Shown piece by piece: positions 8,903 to 30,913 of a stretch of 64,000 nucleotides of DNA. The translations under genes were made by a program, and so were the position numbers. Position 1 is the first letter of the stretch; each line of letters starts with the position of its first letter. Source of the stretch: Polynucleobacter sp. CS-Odin-A6. GTDB taxonomy: Bacteria; Pseudomonadota; Gammaproteobacteria; Burkholderiales; Burkholderiaceae. Where the stretch lies: assembly GCF_018882095.1 (NCBI RefSeq), contig NZ_JACVPD010000001.1, positions 434,001-498,000 on the forward strand, read 5' to 3'. Under the pieces are notes generated by a model. The model was not told the origin of the DNA and searched no databases. It saw nothing but the letters and a program-made list of their open reading frames with translations.

Positions 8903-10057
8903 TTACCACGTAATCCGCGGCATTCTCCAAGGTAGCATCAATTGAGTTGAAGTTAACGTGAGTTTGGGTACGCTTAAAGTTTCATGAAATGAGAGTACCT
9001 TCTCGCCCAATAGTTCAGAATTCAAAACAGAGCGGGTATAGAAAGGCGTGTTTTCCAATACCTTGTGCACTGCCAAGGTCTCAGAGTTTGGATTACGCAT
9101 GTGCCCCCGAATACCCCAAACAGTTTTTGGCAATGCTTGCCTCGGCGGGGCTTCAAAGTGATCAATCGTTCCATTGGGATTGAAGGTCAATGCCAAGACA
9201 TTTTCTTGGGCATTCTTTTCGCGCACATCATAAATTACTGAAGTTCTACCACCACTCATTTCTGCCCTTGACCAATCCCATTCATGAAAAGCTTGGCTGA
9301 TTGGCTCATCCCCTTCATTAGAATCTAAATAGGCATTCCCTTCCCAATGTAAGTCAGGGGAGTTCAATTTGACCTTCACACGTGCTGAGGGAGCAAGCGG
9401 GCCCCAGCGGTGTTTGCCTGCGGCATCTAAGGGTGTACTAAAGTTGAAGAGGGTGTTGGGATAAAGCTCAACAGTGCCAGAAATCTTTTGCCCAAACGGT
9501 ACTGCGCGCTCTTGAATACGGACAGTTAATTTATTGCCATCCCAATCAATACTGCTGGGGCCAATGACAAACTCATTGGAGCTACGGGAAACTTGTTTTT
9601 CTCCCCGCTCAGTCATCGCCCAACGATTTTTCCCCGGACTATAAATTGCTACATTTAGTGAGCAATGATTTTCAGGATTTACTGCCGAATTATTTCTTCT
9701 TGCCCAGGCATAGTAGGGAGAGAAAACACTGCCAACAAAGGCAATCAGTACGATGCCGTGCTTGCCATCATCACTTAGAGCGTCGATGTACCACCAGAGA
9801 TAAGCGTTCTCCCCGACAGCTTGATCAAACCGAGGTGATCCATCAGGGTTGCGGCCGCCATGCGCCCCGATAGGGCTGCCATTGGCACTCCCGGGCCGGG
9901 ATGCACGCTCCCCCCCGCTAGATACAGGCCCGGAATCGGGCTTTGCGTTGAAGCTCGCTGAAAGGTTTCCATCCAGCCGTGATTCGCTTGACCGTAAAGG
10001 GCTCCACCCGTTGCCGGAAAGAGCTGATTGAAAAGAGAGGGCGTTGTGCGTTGACAT
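8903..10057 (-). CDS. crtC: Acyclic carotenoid hydratase CrtC (annotated 1-hydroxyneurosporene / carotenoid 1,2-hydratase)
   Basis: The conserved CrtC core begins near residue 73 (DGSPRFDQ, then WWYIDALSDDG, FVGSVFSPYYAWAR) and continues to the end. CrtC hydrates the psi-end of neurosporene or lycopene for spheroidene or spirilloxanthin synthesis. The only ATG, GTG or TTG in frame upstream of the core is at 10057, which overlaps the end of crtD by 283 bp in another frame. The first ~70 residues there are Ser/Gly-rich and look like out-of-frame translation of crtD. Either the overlap is real, or translation starts at a rarer codon (CTG or ATC) inside crtD. Operon with crtD and crtA. Confidence 0.9.
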   Translation of the reverse strand: MSTHNALSFQSALSGNGWSPLRSSESRLDGNLSASFNAKPDSGPVSSGGERASRPGSANGSPIGAHGGRNPDGSPRFDQAVGENAYLWWYIDALSDDGKHGIVLIAFVGSVFSPYYAWARRNNSAVNPENHCSLNVAIYSPGKNRWAMTERGEKQVSRSSNEFVIGPSSIDWDGNKLTVRIQERAVPFGQKISGTVELYPNTLFNFSTPLDAAGKHRWGPLAPSARVKVKLNSPDLHWEGNAYLDSNEGDEPISQAFHEWDWSRAEMSGGRTSVIYDVREKNAQENVLALTFNPNGTIDHFEAPPRQALPKTVWGIRGHMRNPNSETLAVHKVLENTPFYTRSVLNSELLGEKVLSFHETLSVPKLTLTSTQLMLPWRMPRITW

Positions 10058-11370
10058 ATTGCGCTATCCAAGTCGATGTTTAGACCACATTGTTGCAGAA
10101 GACTAAAAGTTTCGCGTTCGCAGGCGTCGATTTGCTGCGCACTGAATTCCGATTGATCGCCGATTGCTGGTGCATTAACTAAGCAGAGTAATTTTTGTGG
10201 ATGTGAACTGGCTTCATAAGCATCGCCTTGATCTTGAGCGCAAACGTATACCGTTGGCTTTTGGGGGAGACGCTTTCTAAGAAAAATATCATCAAATTCA
10301 GCACGATAATCTTGATTAAAGAATACATTATGTCGGACCAAGGGAAAGCCATCGGCTTTGGCATTAATCGACCAAGTAACAGCAGAAAGTGATCTTTTAG
10401 CAGCGCTTGGTGGCGTCATTTTGGCATTCATTGCTTGCTTGCCAGATGGCTTGAGTAAGCCAGTTTGTAGTGCGGCTAAATCACCATTAAAAATCACGGC
10501 TTGTGCTCGAATAATTGTTCCATCAGCCAATCGCACTCCGCTAGCACGACCCTGCTCCATGAGGATTTCTTCACAAGCTTGGCCTGTCAGGATTTGTACG
10601 CCTTTAGCTTGCGCTAATTGCTGAATCGCTTTGACCAGGCTGTACATGCCACCTTCCACAGCCCATACTCCTTGTGCCTCTACATCCGCTATCAACATTA
10701 AGGTGGCAGGGGCTTGATAGGGGGAGGAGCCGCAATAGGTAGCGTATCTTCCAAACAGTTGGCGCAATCTGGGGTCATGGAAATAGTCACCCAGTGATTT
10801 CCAGAGAGAATTAAATAAACCAATGTCGTATAAGACTTTAGATCCCGATATGCCAAGATCATTGATCATTCCCCCAAAGCTGGGCTTTTCAGAGAGCATG
10901 TAAGGCTTCTCAAGCGCCTGATAGAGTTTGCGGCATTGTTTTGAGAATTGAAGAAAGCGGTCTGCTTCAGCTGCGGAAGAAAATGCTTTTATTGCTTCCC
11001 CTGATTGATCTGCGTTAGCAAATAAATCCAGGCGCTCATCTTTGCTCCAGGCATGACGGGCTAAGATGTCTAACTTAGTAATAGTTAACTCAGACTCTAA
11101 GGAAGTTCCCGCTTTTTGGAAGAGGCCATCAAAAACCCAGCGCATGGTAAAAACGGTGGGACCAGAGTCTATAAGTGCGGGAACCGAGGGATCGCTTGCG
11201 CAGTTAAGTTGTCTAATTTTGCCGCCCAGCTGAGCTTCTTTTTCAACCACAATGACTTCGACTCCAGACGATGCCAGATCGAGTGCACAACTTAAGCCAC
11301 CAATACCTCCACCAACAATGACTACTGGTAATTTAGACAAGGGTGCGACCCTTCCAGCTACCGTTTGCAT
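9775..11370 (-). CDS. crtD: Methoxyneurosporene (1-hydroxycarotenoid 3,4-) desaturase CrtD
   Basis: About 530 residues, a CrtI-family FAD enzyme. The N-terminal GGGIGGLSCALDL dinucleotide motif is present, and the C-terminal GLYLAGGSVHPGPGVPMAALSG is the CrtD version of the family end. It introduces the C3-C4 double bond into hydroxylated acyclic carotenoids. The ATG at 11370 lies 38 bases inside crtA and lacks a clear Shine-Dalgarno. An in-frame TTG at 11340, overlapping the crtA stop and preceded by GGAAGGG, is an attractive alternative, giving the expected start just before LSKLPVVIVGGG. Its 3' end overlaps crtC. Confidence 0.94.
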   Translation of the reverse strand: MQTVAGRVAPLSKLPVVIVGGGIGGLSCALDLASSGVEVIVVEKEAQLGGKIRQLNCASDPSVPALIDSGPTVFTMRWVFDGLFQKAGTSLESELTITKLDILARHAWSKDERLDLFANADQSGEAIKAFSSAAEADRFLQFSKQCRKLYQALEKPYMLSEKPSFGGMINDLGISGSKVLYDIGLFNSLWKSLGDYFHDPRLRQLFGRYATYCGSSPYQAPATLMLIADVEAQGVWAVEGGMYSLVKAIQQLAQAKGVQILTGQACEEILMEQGRASGVRLADGTIIRAQAVIFNGDLAALQTGLLKPSGKQAMNAKMTPPSAAKRSLSAVTWSINAKADGFPLVRHNVFFNQDYRAEFDDIFLRKRLPQKPTVYVCAQDQGDAYEASSHPQKLLCLVNAPAIGDQSEFSAQQIDACERETFSLLQQCGLNIDLDSAICQRTTPSLFNQLFPATGGALYGQANHGWMETFQRASTQSPIPGLYLAGGSVHPGPGVPMAALSGRMAAATLMDHLGLIKLSGRTLISGGTSTL

Positions 11371-12019
11371 CAAAGGGGATGTAGCGAGAGAACATCGACT
11401 CAGAAAAATAATGACCGCTTAAGGAGGCGCGAATCGCATTTTGGTGAGCACCCTGCCGGGCGTATTGATCCATTGCTGCTTGGGATTCCCAAATAGTAAA
11501 GGTAGCCTGCCGAAAGAAAGGCGCTTCGCCAACACCCGCGGCAATGATGCAACCAGCGGATTGTTGTAATGAGACTTCTGCAGCAGGTTGCTTCTGCCAA
11601 AAAGGAATGCAATACCTTGGCTTGATTGATGCTCTAGTAATGGAGACGATCGGACCAGAAATGGGGGCTTCCGCAGTAATGTAGGGGGCGAAGCCTGACC
11701 ACTGACCCTTGATGGAGTAAGCCTTCAGCTTGACGGAAAAAAAATCCTGAGCGTGCTCTCGATACCAGCGAATTAATCTAGACGATTGGTAAAAATGCTC
11801 TAGGCTGGCCATATCTTGAAAAACACAAAATAGGGCTTGGTGGGTTCCGCTCGGATGAATTGAGAAACCCCCATTTTTGCCAGAACCCATGTGTTTGTAG
11901 AATTTCAGTCCTGGAGTTGTCCAGAGCCCAAGGCGGGCAAACATGAGTCTTAAAATGCCACTGATTTTTGCTGATAATTGGATGTCCACAAGAACCATTA
12001 ATGCAACTTGGTCGTTCAT
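11333..12019 (-). CDS. crtA: Spheroidene monooxygenase CrtA
   Basis: 228 residues. It matches the CrtA family in MVLVDIQLSAKISGILRLMFARLGL, with later RYCIPFWQ, and an antibiotic-monooxygenase-like segment (FRQATFTIWESQAAMDQYAR). It oxidises spheroidene to spheroidenone under oxygen, suggesting spheroidenone as the main carotenoid of this aerobic phototroph (inference). It lies 10 bases after ppsR and overlaps the crtD start region, so aerR-ppsR-crtA-crtD-crtC appears to be one transcript. Confidence 0.93.
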   Translation of the reverse strand: MNDQVALMVLVDIQLSAKISGILRLMFARLGLWTTPGLKFYKHMGSGKNGGFSIHPSGTHQALFCVFQDMASLEHFYQSSRLIRWYREHAQDFFSVKLKAYSIKGQWSGFAPYITAEAPISGPIVSITRASIKPRYCIPFWQKQPAAEVSLQQSAGCIIAAGVGEAPFFRQATFTIWESQAAMDQYARQGAHQNAIRASLSGHYFSESMFSRYIPFDANGSWKGRTLV

Positions 12020-14583: not shown

Positions 14584-15258
14584 ATGGAAAAAACATATAA
14601 GCCACTCTACACCCCAGAGGAAAGGGTAAAAAGAGACGCGACTAAATGGACTTTGGTTCAGGGAATTTTAGCGCCCGTCCAATTCTTGGTTTTCTTAGTC
14701 AGCTTGTATCTAGTGTTGCGTTTTTTGTGGACCGGAGAGGGTGAGTACGCCGCTAATGTTTCGGTGGTGGTGAAAACCTTAACGCTCTACACCATCATGA
14801 TTACCGGATGCATTTGGGAAAAAGTCGTTTTCAATTGCTATCTATTTGCACCGGCATTCTTCTGGGAAGATGTCTTCAGTATGCTGGTGTTGCTCTTGCA
14901 CACTTTATATCTAGTAGCCCTAGCAACAGGTTATTTAGATCAATACCAATTAATGATTTTGGCATTAGCTGCCTATGCAACTTATGTCGTCAATGCAGGC
15001 CAATTTATTTGGAAGTTGCGAATGGCACGCTTGGATATGGAAAAGAAGCAGCGCGAGTCTAAGCTTGGCGCTGAAGCTATTCGCCTCGAAGCCGTCCAAG
15101 CGGCAAGCCTTTACAGTTCGCCCGCAACCTTAACCGGCTTGAGCATAGAAGAGGCAGAAGAGTTGCATCGCAATCTGGTACAGGGAACGCAATTTTTTGG
15201 GTTGATTGCTGCTATTGCCCATTTGCTTGCTTACATCTATTCCCCTTGGTTGAAATAA
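14584..15258 (+). CDS. bchF: 3-vinyl bacteriochlorophyllide hydratase fused to an LH2-beta-like domain
   Basis: 224 residues, versus about 160-170 for classical BchF. Residues 1-~165 are BchF: RDATKWTLVQGILAPVQF, several membrane helices, FNCYLFAPAFFWEDVFS and TYVVNAGQFIWKLR. BchF hydrates the C3 vinyl group of (bacterio)chlorophyllide. After a helical, charged linker (~150-181), residues 182-224 are an LH2 beta polypeptide almost identical to PucB of this window, with both conserved His (195 and 213) and the PWLK end. The ATG has no clear Shine-Dalgarno. bchM follows 21 bases on. The fusion could tether the enzyme to antenna assembly or hold pigment; this is inference. Confidence 0.93.
   Translation: MEKTYKPLYTPEERVKRDATKWTLVQGILAPVQFLVFLVSLYLVLRFLWTGEGEYAANVSVVVKTLTLYTIMITGCIWEKVVFNCYLFAPAFFWEDVFSMLVLLLHTLYLVALATGYLDQYQLMILALAAYATYVVNAGQFIWKLRMARLDMEKKQRESKLGAEAIRLEAVQAASLYSSPATLTGLSIEEAEELHRNLVQGTQFFGLIAAIAHLLAYIYSPWLK
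15127..15255 (+). repeat. PucB-like domain duplication within bchF
   Basis: Codons 182-224 of bchF encode a copy of the LH2 beta polypeptide also encoded by pucB (30770-30913, minus). By hand alignment 39 of 43 residues are identical and the four changes are conservative (I/V, V/I, L/M, I/L). About 20 of the 39 identical residues use different codons. This points to an old duplication kept by purifying selection rather than a recent copy. No alpha gene accompanies it. Confidence 0.9.
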
Positions 15259-20546: not shown

Positions 20547-21299
20547 ATGAGTATTGTTTGGCCTATCCTCTATTCCATATTTATATGGTGGTTTAGCACG
20601 GGAATTATTCTCTTGCTAAACCAGCGGGATCCTTCGACCTATAAAAATACCTTCTTTGTCAGTGGGATGGTTTTGGCTTTGGCTTTAGTCGGACTAAAAA
20701 CCAGCGCCAACGTCAGTACAGTAGCGGGTGCGTATTGTGGATTCACCTGTGCCATTTTGGTTTGGGGTTGGCAAGAAATTGGTTTCTTATTTGGTTATGT
20801 CACCGGCCCTCGTCGAGAGCCCTGTCCAGAAGGCTGTCGGGGTTGGCAAAAGATGTACTTTGCATTTAAGACGATCCAGCATCATGAGATCGCTTTAGTT
20901 ATCTTGGCGCTGGCTGTGACTGCGATGACCTGGGGAGGTTCAAACCAGACCGGTTTTTGGACCTTCATGATTCTCTGGCTCATGAGACAGAGCGCCAAGT
21001 TAAATATCTTCTTTGGTGTTTTAAATCTCAATGAGCGTTTCCTACCAAATCATCTGAAATATATCTTTACTTATTTCACCTGCAAACCGATGAATCCACT
21101 CCTGCCACTATCGGTGATCGGCGGTGTGCTCTGCGCCATACCGTTATGGCAAGCGGCATTTCATCCAAGTAGCAGTGATTTCATGGTTGCCTCTATGTCA
21201 TTGACTGGCGCTATTTTGTCCTTAGCGGTCTTAGAACATATTTTGATGGTGGTTCCTTTTTCTAGCGAAGGCTTGTGGAAATGGGGGATGCGATCATAA
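20547..21299 (+). CDS. puhE: Photosynthetic complex assembly protein PuhE (DUF3623)
   Basis: About 250 residues with seven or so membrane helices. It starts MSIVWPILYSIFIWW and contains the PuhE motifs GYVTGPRREPCPEGCRGW, TIQHHEIAL and LNIFFGVLNLNERFLP. The ATG at 20547 just after the acsF stop is chosen over a longer in-frame start inside acsF. PuhE modulates RC-LH1 production. Its 3' end overlaps the bchG start. Confidence 0.92.
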   Translation: MSIVWPILYSIFIWWFSTGIILLLNQRDPSTYKNTFFVSGMVLALALVGLKTSANVSTVAGAYCGFTCAILVWGWQEIGFLFGYVTGPRREPCPEGCRGWQKMYFAFKTIQHHEIALVILALAVTAMTWGGSNQTGFWTFMILWLMRQSAKLNIFFGVLNLNERFLPNHLKYIFTYFTCKPMNPLLPLSVIGGVLCAIPLWQAAFHPSSSDFMVASMSLTGAILSLAVLEHILMVVPFSSEGLWKWGMRS

Positions 21300-22198
21300 A
21301 CACGCTCACCATGCGCCGCCTTCCTGCGCCATCCGCCATTTTGGAATTGCTAAAACCCATTACTTGGTTTCCGCCAATGTGGGCTTTTGCCTGTGGCGTC
21401 ATTGCAACCGGAGTTTCCTTTGAGGGGCGCTGGCACTTATTAGTTGCTGGGGTGATTCTGGCTGGCCCAATGGTGTGCGCTGCTAGTCAGGCCGTGAATG
21501 ATTGGTTTGACCGCGAGGTAGATGCCATTAATGAACCACAGCGTCCCATTCCTTCTGGTCGGATGCCGGGAGCTTGGGGTTTATACGTTGCCTTTATTTG
21601 GACCGGCCTCTCACTTCTATTAGGTTGGTTCATTAGTCCTTGGGCATTTGCCGCAACACTGCTTGGACTTTTGCTAGCCTGGTTCTACAGCATGCCGCCA
21701 TTACGATTTAAGCAAAATGGTTGGTTGGGTAATGCGGCTTGCGGAATCTCTTATGAGGGATTGGCTTGGTTTACTGGCTCAGCGGTAATGATGGGAGACG
21801 TATTTCCTTCTACCCCATCTATTCTGCTCGCGATTTTGTATAGCATTGGTGCACACGGCATCATGACTTTGAATGATTTCAAGGCGATCGAAGGCGATCG
21901 TCAAATGGGTGTCCTCTCTTTACCAGTCCAGCTCGGCATTGCAGGTGCCGCTGAGAATGCTTGCTTAATGATGTTGGCTCCCCAGTTTGGAGTTTTTGGC
22001 CTCTTGTTGATCTGGGGTGCTTATTGGCAGGCTGGTGTGATTCTGTTGCTGATCGCAGGACAAATCATCATGATGCGTAATTTCCTGTTAGATCCTGTCA
22101 AACGTGCATTATTTCTGAGTGGGTTTGGGGTGCCATTATTTGTTGCTGGAATGATGGTGAGTGCATTTGCAGTGGCGGGACGTTTCTCGGTTAATTAA
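21281..22198 (+). CDS. bchG: Bacteriochlorophyll synthase (geranylgeranyltransferase)
   Basis: About 305 residues of the UbiA prenyltransferase family with eight to nine membrane helices. The first Asp-rich motif is NDWFDREVDAINEPQRPIPSG and the second is NDFKAIEGDRQMGV. It esterifies bacteriochlorophyllide a with geranylgeranyl diphosphate. The ATG at 21281 overlaps the end of puhE by 19 bases; a GTG at 21275 is possible. It is followed by the Bch2-like transporter and bchP, the standard order. Confidence 0.96.
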   Translation: MGDAIINTLTMRRLPAPSAILELLKPITWFPPMWAFACGVIATGVSFEGRWHLLVAGVILAGPMVCAASQAVNDWFDREVDAINEPQRPIPSGRMPGAWGLYVAFIWTGLSLLLGWFISPWAFAATLLGLLLAWFYSMPPLRFKQNGWLGNAACGISYEGLAWFTGSAVMMGDVFPSTPSILLAILYSIGAHGIMTLNDFKAIEGDRQMGVLSLPVQLGIAGAAENACLMMLAPQFGVFGLLLIWGAYWQAGVILLLIAGQIIMMRNFLLDPVKRALFLSGFGVPLFVAGMMVSAFAVAGRFSVN

Positions 22199-29045: not shown

Positions 29046-30458
29046 TTAAGCAACTGATTCTACAGGCTTTGCTGGCCAAATAAAGTTGGCCATGGCTGTG
29101 ATGGTAATCACTAGCAGGATGATTTCAATGAGATAGACGCCGCAGTAACCCGTTGCAGGGTTGTTGAGATCTGCGCCAAAATAATTTCTGGAGGCCATCC
29201 CCGCCAAAATATCCCGAAATATCCCGCCAACACCCACTGCAATACCAGCAGCAGTGGCCTGAACAGCACCCCAGGCGCCCAATGCCAAACCACTTTGATT
29301 TTCTGGGGCATATCTCATGGTGGCGGTTAAGGTACCGTGACTAAATAGCCCGTTCCCAAACCCAATCATCACCACGCCGACAATAAAAATGAAATTGCTC
29401 TCTAGGGGCGCCGCCAAGATCACCAGTATGAATGCGGGAATACCAATTTTGGCGCCATTGCTCGCCATCTTAAAAGGGTCGTAACCCGCGCTTAAGACTT
29501 TGGATGCAATGCTAAAACCAAATAAGCAACCTACGGCTAAGGTGGCTGTTAATACTGTAGTGGCACTCACGCTCATATTGAGTAATTCACCACCGTAGGG
29601 CTCAAGCAAAACATCGTTCATGCTAAATGCCATCGTGCCGAATCCCACAGCAATTAAACGGCGAACCGCTTGACCACCTTCTTTAAAAGTAGCCCAAGAT
29701 TCTCTAAAGTTTTGCTCTCTGGCAACCATTGCGCGAGCACGCGCTTCTTCGCGACTCTCCTGTTTCCACAATGCAATCGCATTCAAAACAATCGTAGCTA
29801 CCGCACTTCCTTGAATGACTTGAATCAATCTTCCTGGGCTGTACTCTTCTAATAGCTGACCAAAAATGATGGCACTGCCAATCATTCCAACTAACAGCAT
29901 CACAAACATCAGGCCCACAATATTCGGTTGTGCTTTAGGTGGTGCAAGATCACAAGCCAATGCAAGGCCAACAGTTTGAGTAGTGTGAATGCCAGCGCCC
30001 ACAAATAAAAATGCCAGTGCAGCTGCTGCTAATCCAACCCATGCCGGTGCTTCACTGGCATTACCGGCACCCGCCAAGACCAGTAAGGCAAATGGCATGA
30101 TGGCTAAGCCACCAAACTGCACCATCGTTCCCATCCAGATATAGGGAACACGACGCCAGCCTAAAGCAGATTTATGGGTATCCGAGCGAAACCCAATTAA
30201 AGCTCTAATGGGCGCAAAAATAATGGGCAGGGCAACCATGATGGATACCAGTGATGCTGGTACCTGTAACTCGACAATCATCACTCGATTGAGAGTGCCC
30301 ACCAATAACACGAGGGCCATACCAACCGATACTTGAAAGAGCGAGAGTCTGAGTAATCTGCCGAGTGGTAATTCAGCAGTAGCAGCGTCTGCAAAAGGCA
30401 AAAAACGAGGGCCTAAATTTGCCCAAGTGCTGATTAATTTTTGACTAAAACGATTCAT
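29046..30458 (-). CDS. pucC: LH2 assembly protein PucC
   Basis: 470 residues, about 12 membrane helices, strongly similar to LhaA in the same window (LPFADAATAELPLGRLLRLSL, RVPYIWMGTMVQFGG, DVLLEPYGGELL). It sits downstream of pucBA, so is called PucC, the factor needed for LH2 assembly and accumulation. It is separated from pucA by a hairpin-plus-U-tract element that would lower its expression relative to the antenna polypeptides. Confidence 0.93.
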   Translation of the reverse strand: MNRFSQKLISTWANLGPRFLPFADAATAELPLGRLLRLSLFQVSVGMALVLLVGTLNRVMIVELQVPASLVSIMVALPIIFAPIRALIGFRSDTHKSALGWRRVPYIWMGTMVQFGGLAIMPFALLVLAGAGNASEAPAWVGLAAAALAFLFVGAGIHTTQTVGLALACDLAPPKAQPNIVGLMFVMLLVGMIGSAIIFGQLLEEYSPGRLIQVIQGSAVATIVLNAIALWKQESREEARARAMVAREQNFRESWATFKEGGQAVRRLIAVGFGTMAFSMNDVLLEPYGGELLNMSVSATTVLTATLAVGCLFGFSIASKVLSAGYDPFKMASNGAKIGIPAFILVILAAPLESNFIFIVGVVMIGFGNGLFSHGTLTATMRYAPENQSGLALGAWGAVQATAAGIAVGVGGIFRDILAGMASRNYFGADLNNPATGYCGVYLIEIILLVITITAMANFIWPAKPVESVA

Positions 30459-30547: not shown

Positions 30548-30754
30548 TTATTTTTGTGCTGCTGGTGCCATCGGTGCAGCCGCTGCCGCGCCAGTAGCTT
30601 TAGTAGATTTACCGCCTTCTAAAAAAGCCTTCACCCAAGTTGTGTTATTAAGTAATGCTAAATGTACTGAAAAAGAACCGACTGCAACTGCACCCAAAAA
30701 CAATGGGATGCCAACAGTTGGTTTAACGACAGTCCACATTTTTCCGTAGATCAT
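30548..30754 (-). CDS. pucA: LH2 light-harvesting alpha polypeptide (820-nm type residues)
   Basis: 68 residues. Aligned without gaps to the classical LH2 alpha: KMWTVVKPTVGIP at the N-terminus, His31 in FSVHLALL as the B850 ligand, and TTW at 38-40. Positions 44 and 45 are Phe and Leu instead of the Tyr/Trp or Tyr/Tyr pair that hydrogen-bonds the B850 acetyl groups. Phe44/Leu45 is the known signature of B800-820 (LH3) antennas. The C-terminal tail is Ala/Pro-rich. AAGGAGC precedes the ATG; pucB is 15 bases upstream. Confidence 0.95.
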   Translation of the reverse strand: MIYGKMWTVVKPTVGIPLFLGAVAVGSFSVHLALLNNTTWVKAFLEGGKSTKATGAAAAAPMAPAAQK

Positions 30755-30769: not shown

Positions 30770-30913
30770 TTACTTCAACCAAGGTGAATATATATAAGCA
30801 AGTAAATGGGCGAGTGCTGCAATCATCCCAAAAAATTGCGTACCTTGAATCAGGTTGCGGTGTAGCTCTTCCGCTTCCTCCACACTCAAACCTGTAAGAG
30901 TGTTATTTGTCAT
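30770..30913 (-). CDS. pucB: LH2 light-harvesting beta polypeptide
   Basis: 47 residues. N-terminal TLTGLSVEEAEELHRNL, then a membrane helix with the bacteriochlorophyll ligand in LAHLLAYIYSPWLK. It is the first gene of pucB-pucA-pucC on the minus strand. The ATG is preceded by a GAGAGGAAAA-type stretch. The polypeptide is duplicated, at 39 of 43 identity, as the C-terminal domain of BchF. A PpsR box lies about 93 bases upstream of the start. Confidence 0.95.
   Translation of the reverse strand: MTNNTLTGLSVEEAEELHRNLIQGTQFFGMIAALAHLLAYIYSPWLK

What the first reader, a model, noticed from the sequence alone, without database searches (positions are those of the whole stretch)
14584..15258. 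BchF fused to an LH2 beta polypeptide
Seen: BchF is 224 residues, some 55 longer than classical BchF. Residues 182-224 match PucB of the same genome at 39 of 43 positions, with both conserved His and the SPWLK end. About 20 of the 39 identical residues have different codons, and the four changes are conservative, so the domain has been held by purifying selection since an old duplication. Inference: a bacteriochlorophyll enzyme carrying a pigment-binding antenna helix could channel pigment to LH assembly, anchor BchF in assembly sites, or add a beta subunit to LH2 rings. I know of no described BchF-antenna fusion.
Basis: partly seen in the sequence, partly recalled or inferred. Interest (0 to 1): 0.93.

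Follow-up and report, generated by a model that had tools for sequence, protein, structure and literature searches.

The report
Pigment enzyme fused to antenna helix
In one lineage of Polynucleobacter bacteria, the gene for the predicted bacteriochlorophyll-making enzyme BchF ends in a conserved copy of a light-harvesting antenna helix, which likely holds the enzyme where new antenna complexes are built.

Summary
One 224-codon frame (14584-15258, +) encodes BchF (Pfam BCHF, residues 9-147), a variable linker and an LH2-type beta polypeptide that matches the window's own PucB at 39 of 43 residues (20 of the 39 with a different codon). It is not an artefact. All 78 BchF places found in 77 of 186 genomes of the genus were read: 15 are fused; 6 carry a deletion scar ending in the last codons of the tail; 56 have neither; 1 is cut by a contig end. 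The 21 fused or scarred genes form one branch and share a rearranged operon (bchM instead of bchN downstream). Tails form one clade (100/99) that groups with this lineage's own pucB. Tail dN/dS is 0.07 (BchF 0.04, linker 0.26-0.45, pucB 0). Both histidines and the PWLK end are kept in 15 of 15 fused genes. The tail was lost again in six genomes, which are not one clade, while pucB stayed (6 of 6), so it is accessory. My best explanation, an inference, is that the helix docks BchF at LH2 assembly sites. The nearest working parallel is ferrochelatase with a CAB domain, which is not homologous. No such fusion turned up in my paper searches.

The parts
14584..15258 (+). bchF-pucB' fusion gene, 224 aa, the only BchF match in the genome
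   Evidence: one PF07284 match in G000
14608..15024 (+). BchF domain (residues 9-147), predicted 4 transmembrane helices
   Evidence: Pfam BCHF; AlphaFold2 helices 21-50, 54-83, 90-115, 120-169
15025..15126 (+). Linker (residues 148-181), variable; weakly predicted from residue 168 on
   Evidence: dN/dS 0.26-0.45; pLDDT under 50 at 168-183
15127..15255 (+). LH2-type beta polypeptide domain (residues 182-224), predicted helix 188-219
15166..15168 (+). His195, first conserved antenna histidine
   Evidence: 82 of 82 distinct tails; 15 of 15 fused genomes
15220..15222 (+). His213, the position of the axial ligand of bacteriochlorophyll in beta polypeptides (role recalled)
   Evidence: 81 of 82 distinct tails (exception P0088); 15 of 15 fused genomes
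30770..30913 (-). pucB, free-standing LH2 beta, source family of the tail
30548..30754 (-). pucA, LH2 alpha
29046..30458 (-). PUCC-family gene (pucC-like LH2 assembly factor by position)
   Evidence: Pfam PF03209
15280..16005 (+). bchM, next gene after the fusion
   Evidence: TIGR02021
16008..17456 (+). PUCC-family gene at the lhaA position
   Evidence: PF03209; the name lhaA rests on position
21275..22198 (+). UbiA-family prenyltransferase, likely bchG
   Evidence: PF01040

Best explanation
The window encodes a predicted 3-vinyl bacteriochlorophyllide hydratase (BchF) joined in one frame to an LH2-type beta antenna helix, and the helix likely docks the enzyme at the membrane sites where LH2 is assembled. 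Shown: one reading frame, tails of one clade grouping with this lineage's own pucB, purifying selection on the tail, conservation of both histidines and of the PWLK end, and later loss in six genomes. Predicted: BchF has four transmembrane helices with both ends in the cytoplasm, then a flexible linker, then the antenna helix entering the membrane from the cytoplasm as free beta polypeptides do. Inferred: the helix still pairs with PucA and/or is taken up by the PucC/LhaA-type assembly factors. That would place BchF, encoded just upstream of bchM, the lhaA-like gene and likely bchG, in the zone where finished pigment meets nascent antenna protein. A reason to do so would be that LH1 and LH2 of Rhodobacter sphaeroides do not form with 3-vinyl pigment, the pigment made without BchF, while reaction centres do (PMC10101016). 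BchF acts several steps before finished bacteriochlorophyll, so this would be co-localisation of the pathway, not direct hand-over.
For: Fused gene in 15 genomes of the genus; 302 proteins of the large database match the tail region in a protein of this length, 120 of them listed. Tail dN/dS 0.07 against 0.26-0.45 in the linker beside it. Antenna-specific residues are kept, including the short stretch behind the helix (PWLK 82 of 82 distinct tails), which a plain membrane anchor would not need. One BchF match in each fused genome. Topology fits: positively charged stretches at the N terminus and after helix 4, none in the loops between. Literature: FLAG-PucC and FLAG-LhaA of R. sphaeroides both captured LH2-beta, and LhaA co-migrates with BchG and YidC (PMC4949548, passages); LH1/LH2 did not form with 3-vinyl pigment (PMC10101016, passages).
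Against: No expression, localisation or pigment-binding data. BchF has 0 occurrences in the main text of PMC4949548 (its supplementary tables were not seen). Six relatives lost the tail and kept pucB, so docking is not needed to keep LH2 genes. The tail changes faster than pucB (dN/dS 0.07 against 0) and is less conserved than BchF (positions at 97% or more in 116 distinct 224-aa proteins: tail 21 of 43, BchF 117 of 139, linker 7 of 34). BchF's product is not the pigment that LH2 binds.
Confidence: 0.45

Rival explanations
1. Pigment sensor: the helix binds finished bacteriochlorophyll, probably with PucA, and its occupancy changes BchF activity or stability, so that pigment supply follows antenna demand.
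For: Both histidines conserved. Common tail-specific changes six and two residues before His213 (F at 207 in 71 of 82, I at 211 in 73 of 82 distinct tails; in none of the pucB read) suggest a specialised site. In Synechocystis ferrochelatase, removing the CAB tail raised kcat (PMC3563542, passages).
Against: The linker is weakly predicted (pLDDT under 50 at 168-183) and no contact between tail and BchF domain was examined. [quoted passage not shown]
Confidence: 0.22
2. Extra ring subunit: the tail inserts into LH2 rings as a minor beta subunit, with BchF riding on the outer side of the ring.
For: The hallmark residues of an LH2 beta are kept; a linker of about 34 residues separates BchF from the beta part.
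Against: The tail is less constrained than pucB. One bchF gene can hardly match pucBA output (inference). Losses leave pucB in place.
Confidence: 0.13
3. Passenger or plain membrane anchor: a chance fusion tolerated by selection, perhaps stabilising BchF.
For: Tail lost in six genomes that are not one clade (AU test p 0.00096, five of the six in that tree), leaving BchF under similar constraint (dN/dS 0.029 in the 6 losers).
Against: Tail dN/dS 0.07 over 15 genomes and conserved histidines and PWLK end. BchF already has four predicted helices.
Confidence: 0.15
4. Separate products: the tail is made or released as a free beta polypeptide by internal start or cleavage.
For: The linker is long, variable and weakly predicted.
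Against: No internal start is shared by all 15 fused genes; G040 and G104 have no in-frame ATG, GTG or TTG at all in the stretch scanned. Cleavage was not testable.
Confidence: 0.05

Closest known systems
Classical BchF (TIGR02020, PF07284)
   Same: Whole family domain, score over both cut-offs, only BchF match in the genome
   Different: 48-67 residues longer than the unfused BchF of the genus, with an antenna domain
PucB, LH2 beta polypeptide (PF00556; PDB 7zcu chain B)
   Same: Gap-free alignment over 43 residues, both histidines, PWL end
   Different: Not free-standing; faster evolving; common changes at 207 and 211
Type II ferrochelatase with C-terminal CAB domain (Synechocystis, plants)
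   Same: Tetrapyrrole enzyme with a linker and a C-terminal antenna-family helix (PMC3563542, passages)
   Different: Other enzyme, other antenna family (CAB/Hlip against LH1/LH2)
Chlorophyll synthase with high light-inducible proteins and YidC
   Same: Antenna-like proteins placed at a late pigment enzyme (PMC6175206, start of abstract in the listing)
   Different: Separate proteins in a complex, oxygenic phototroph, last step of the pathway
LhaA/PucC-BchG assembly zones of Rhodobacter sphaeroides
   Same: Pigment enzymes and LH2-beta gathered by assembly factors (PMC4949548, passages)
   Different: No covalent fusion described in the passages seen; BchF not in its main text

Membership tests
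BchF (TIGR02020 / PF07284) | Score over curated cut-off across the model | tested here: met
   179.8 of 101.35 bits, model 1-144 of 145; 203.4 of 25 bits, model 1-139 of 139
BchF (TIGR02020 / PF07284) | Hydration of the 3-vinyl group | not testable with these tools
   Columns invariant across 110 aligned proteins include the window's protein; activity not measured
LH1/LH2 antenna beta polypeptide (PF00556) | Score over curated cut-off | tested here: met
   33.4 of 23 bits; the narrower NCBIfam LH1 beta model is just missed, 59.4 of 61
LH1/LH2 antenna beta polypeptide (PF00556) | Conserved histidine in the transmembrane helix | tested here: met
   His213 in 81 of 82 distinct tails, 15 of 15 fused genomes
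LH1/LH2 antenna beta polypeptide (PF00556) | Free-standing small polypeptide | tested here: not met
   One frame with BchF, no internal start shared by all fused genes
LH1/LH2 antenna beta polypeptide (PF00556) | Binds bacteriochlorophyll and pairs with an alpha subunit | not testable with these tools
   Needs purification
Type II ferrochelatase with CAB domain | CAB/Hlip-family tail on a ferrochelatase | tested here: not met
   Tail is PF00556, enzyme PF07284; no CAB or ferrochelatase family among the Pfam matches up to E 1

The most novel reading that the evidence does not exclude
A purple-bacterial antenna helix has been recruited as a working domain of a pigment-biosynthesis enzyme, a convergent counterpart of the CAB-tailed ferrochelatase: by binding bacteriochlorophyll and PucA at LH2 assembly sites, the tail of BchF reports antenna demand and ties 3-vinyl removal, the step LH2 insists on, to LH2 building.
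Probability: 0.3. Interest if true: 0.88.

Novelty: new variant of a known kind. Interest (0 to 1): 0.74.

Why it matters
How purple bacteria bring pigment supply and antenna assembly together is an open question; the physical links that I know of are non-covalent. A natural covalent link, with natural relatives that lost it by deletion while keeping pucB, gives a ready-made experiment: same genus, same operon, tail on or off. It also shows the same design (tetrapyrrole enzyme plus antenna-family helix) arising with different antenna families in oxygenic and anoxygenic phototrophs.

Tried and rejected
Sequencing or assembly artefact: rejected, since the fused frame is in 15 genomes and in proteins from seven named Polynucleobacter strains, five of them on contigs of about 2 Mb.

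Ongoing copying from pucB (gene conversion): rejected, since tails form one clade apart from all pucB in the trees, 100/99, and tail dS is like that of bchF (0.98 against 1.01 in the ten genomes with both).

LH1 origin (NCBIfam names an LH1 model): rejected, since the tail is 39 of 43 identical to PucB, and PufB of the window is only about 40% identical to PucB.

Other fusions of this kind: none found, within limits. Of 80 loci (the best 80 of 542), L036-L040 are fused, L041-L046 scarred, and the 69 others (L047-L115) have no tail. BchF is in 12 of 398 genomes of the family (all of this genus), 49 of 399 of the order and 31 of 398 of the phylum (these lists overlap and include the window's genome). 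Besides the window's own, 17 frames of 205 aa or more in the order and phylum lists were read and none has an antenna tail; an 18th stretch, a BchF fragment (G880), gave no match. Frames of 193-204 aa were not read, and a tail joined without linker would fit there. In one search, 120 of 311 hits were listed; the four listed long antenna proteins without BchF look by eye like joined neighbours (an UvrA-like start with a beta, PufQ with PufB, two of beta with alpha).

GC3 of pucB, tail and bchF showed no pattern. Whether the two deletion junctions (differing by one base at a C run) are two events or one plus a slip could not be settled; recombination between strains is possible. Well-supported branches alone force 3, 2 and 1 changes between fused and scarred in three trees, so the number of losses is not fixed by the trees.

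Full report
WHAT IS THERE. The frame 14584-15258 (+) is open over 224 codons. Pfam finds BCHF at residues 9-147 and the LH antenna family at 189-223, both over their cut-offs; NCBIfam calls it BchF. Residues 182-224 equal the window's own PucB at 39 of 43 positions, 20 of these with another codon. PucB lies at 30773-30913 (-) with PucA and a PUCC-family gene; the LH1 genes are a separate pair beside pufL at 2.6-4.1 kb. The nearest solved structures of the tail are LH2 beta chains, best 7zcu, E 6e-15; the only match to the BchF part has E 0.57.

THE ORGANISM AND THE SPREAD. The nearest proteins that carry a name belong to Polynucleobacter strains. In 186 genomes of the genus, 77 have BchF, in 78 places. 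All 78 were read. 15 are fused (222-224 aa). 6 are not fused but scarred. 56 have neither tail nor scar (BchF of 157-176 aa, 162 aa in the three read). 1 (G130) is cut by a contig end. In the database of 5.8 billion proteins, a search with residues 175-224 gave 302 hits among 307 candidates, all limited to proteins of roughly this length; of the 120 listed, 119 are annotated with both domains and one (P0088) with BCHF alone. Each fused genome has one BchF match, so the fused form is the only hydratase candidate there, as far as incomplete genomes allow. Antenna matches number five in 13 of the 15 fused genomes (pufBA, pucBA, tail); G179 has 4 and G027 has 3, both incomplete. pucB lay about 16.1 kb from bchF in the 10 fused loci long enough to show it; the other 5 were 5.2 kb or shorter.

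SCARS: THE TAIL WAS LOST, NOT NEVER GAINED. In the six scarred genomes (G010, G024, G148, G149, G165, G170) BchF ends three to six codons after the motif AMAS or SMAS, and these bases are the last codons of the tail (WLK and stop), read out of frame. Two junction types exist, one base apart. The six are not one clade: an AU test on bchF plus bchM rejects it, p 0.00096, with five of the six in that tree. Well-supported branches alone force fewer changes (3; 2 and 1 in the two trees). So there was more than one loss, or one deletion allele moved by recombination. All six keep a lineage-type pucB.

ONE ORIGIN. The 21 fused or scarred genes form one branch of the BchF tree, 100/96 (74 of the 78 places: G130 and the three were not in it). 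In all 21 the next gene is bchM; in the 56 others it is bchN, judged by motifs of these proteins. Tails form one clade, 100/99; tails and this lineage's pucB together stand against nine other pucB of the genus, 100/98 (129 bases, so inner order is weak). Thus a copy of the lineage's own pucB was most likely joined to bchF once, together with a rearrangement of the operon. LPOR, the light-dependent reductase, also marks this lineage: over the cut-off in 6 of 6 tested members (five fused, one scarred) and 0 of 8 tested others, while all 14 have bchN over its cut-off.

SELECTION. Pooled pairwise counts (Nei-Gojobori, own script): BchF dS 1.07, dN/dS 0.040; tail dS 1.19, dN/dS 0.072 (15 genomes each); linker 0.26 (11 genomes of 224 aa) and 0.45 (4 of 222 aa); pucB dS 0.23, dN 0 (12 genomes, two of them scarred). 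dS near 1 is close to saturation, so the ratios are rough, but the order linker, tail, BchF, pucB is clear. Among 82 distinct tails of 162 proteins (166 fetched, four without BchF dropped), His195 is kept in 82, His213 in 81, and PWLK in 82. These proteins come from lists ranked by likeness to the window's protein, so worn tails may be missing; the unranked set of 15 genomes gives 15 of 15 for both histidines and for PWLK. By position, the tail is less conserved than BchF and more than the linker: 21 of 43, 117 of 139 and 7 of 34 positions at 97% or more in 116 distinct 224-aa proteins. Common tail changes that none of the pucB read here shows are F at 207 (71 of 82) and I at 211 (73 of 82), six and two residues before His213; the window's own tail has L and I there.

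STRUCTURE. AlphaFold2 (mean pLDDT 79.6, pTM 0.66; alignment of 110) gives four long helices for BchF, a weakly predicted linker (under 50 at 168-183), and a helix 188-219 at pLDDT about 57-72 by blocks of ten. Charges put both ends of BchF in the cytoplasm, so the tail would enter the membrane in the usual sense of beta polypeptides (direction recalled). No internal start codon is shared by the 15 fused genes; two have none at all in the stretch scanned.

HOW IT MAY WORK. Shown are fusion, grouping, selection and loss. Everything about function is inferred. I favour docking at LH2 assembly sites. The part kept by selection is the antenna signature, including the end behind the helix. LH2-beta was pulled down by tagged PucC and LhaA in Rhodobacter sphaeroides, and LhaA co-migrates with BchG and YidC (PMC4949548, passages). 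LH1 and LH2 there did not form with 3-vinyl pigment, whereas reaction centres did (PMC10101016, abstract and passages). The fusion heads a gene run with bchM, an lhaA-like gene, puhA, acsF, puhE, likely bchG and bchP. Against a direct hand-over: BchF acts before BchXYZ, BchC and BchG in that pathway (order in the PMC10101016 figure legend). The losses say that any gain is conditional.

COMPARISON. The design, a tetrapyrrole enzyme with linker and antenna-family helix, is known from ferrochelatase with a CAB tail. In PMC3563542 (passages) removing the tail raised kcat and pigment binding was not evident; the same passages cite earlier work in which the tail mattered for dimerisation and in which removal of tail plus linker inactivated the enzyme. 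The families here are different ones, so I call it a new variant of a known kind. Paper searches for a description: Polynucleobacter with photosynthesis gene cluster (5 papers), bchF with fusion and beta subunit (1 review), Polynucleobacter with LH2 (0), BchF with hydratase (4), pucB with fused and C-terminal (6), Polynucleobacter with bchF (0), Polynucleobacter with photosynthesis genes (7), bacteriochlorophyllide with gene fusion and antenna (0). I read passages of four papers and one abstract in full; the others I saw as listings, so a mention inside them is not excluded. The library holds open-licence papers alone, so a description in a subscription journal could exist.

Noticed in passing
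30548-30754 (-), pucA: PucA carries A-F-L where B850-type alpha chains have two aromatic hydrogen-bond donors after the helix; by recall this resembles B800-820 (LH3-type) antennas, so this LH2 may absorb near 820 nm.
   Followed up: no
30773-30913 (-), pucB; residue 203 of the fusion: At the place where some LH2 beta chains have an arginine that binds the B800 pigment (recalled; 7zcu has R there) both PucB and the tail have glutamine.
   Followed up: no
G000:C2:419285-420232 (outside the window): The fusion lineage has LPOR besides DPOR (6 of 6 tested); other phototrophic members of the genus have none over the cut-off (0 of 8 tested). With the bchN to bchM change this marks a remodelled photosynthesis cluster.
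   Followed up: partly
G115, G071, G050 bchN regions: The bchN matches run through one stop codon (TAA or TAG) in three of the 14 genomes; alignment overrun or real, not examined.
   Followed up: no
window 8903-11373 (-): Two long overlapping minus-strand frames (8903-10057 and 9775-11373) in the carotenoid gene block; the first matches carotenoid 1,2-hydratase from residue 104 on only, under that model's cut-off. The second was not scanned.
   Followed up: no
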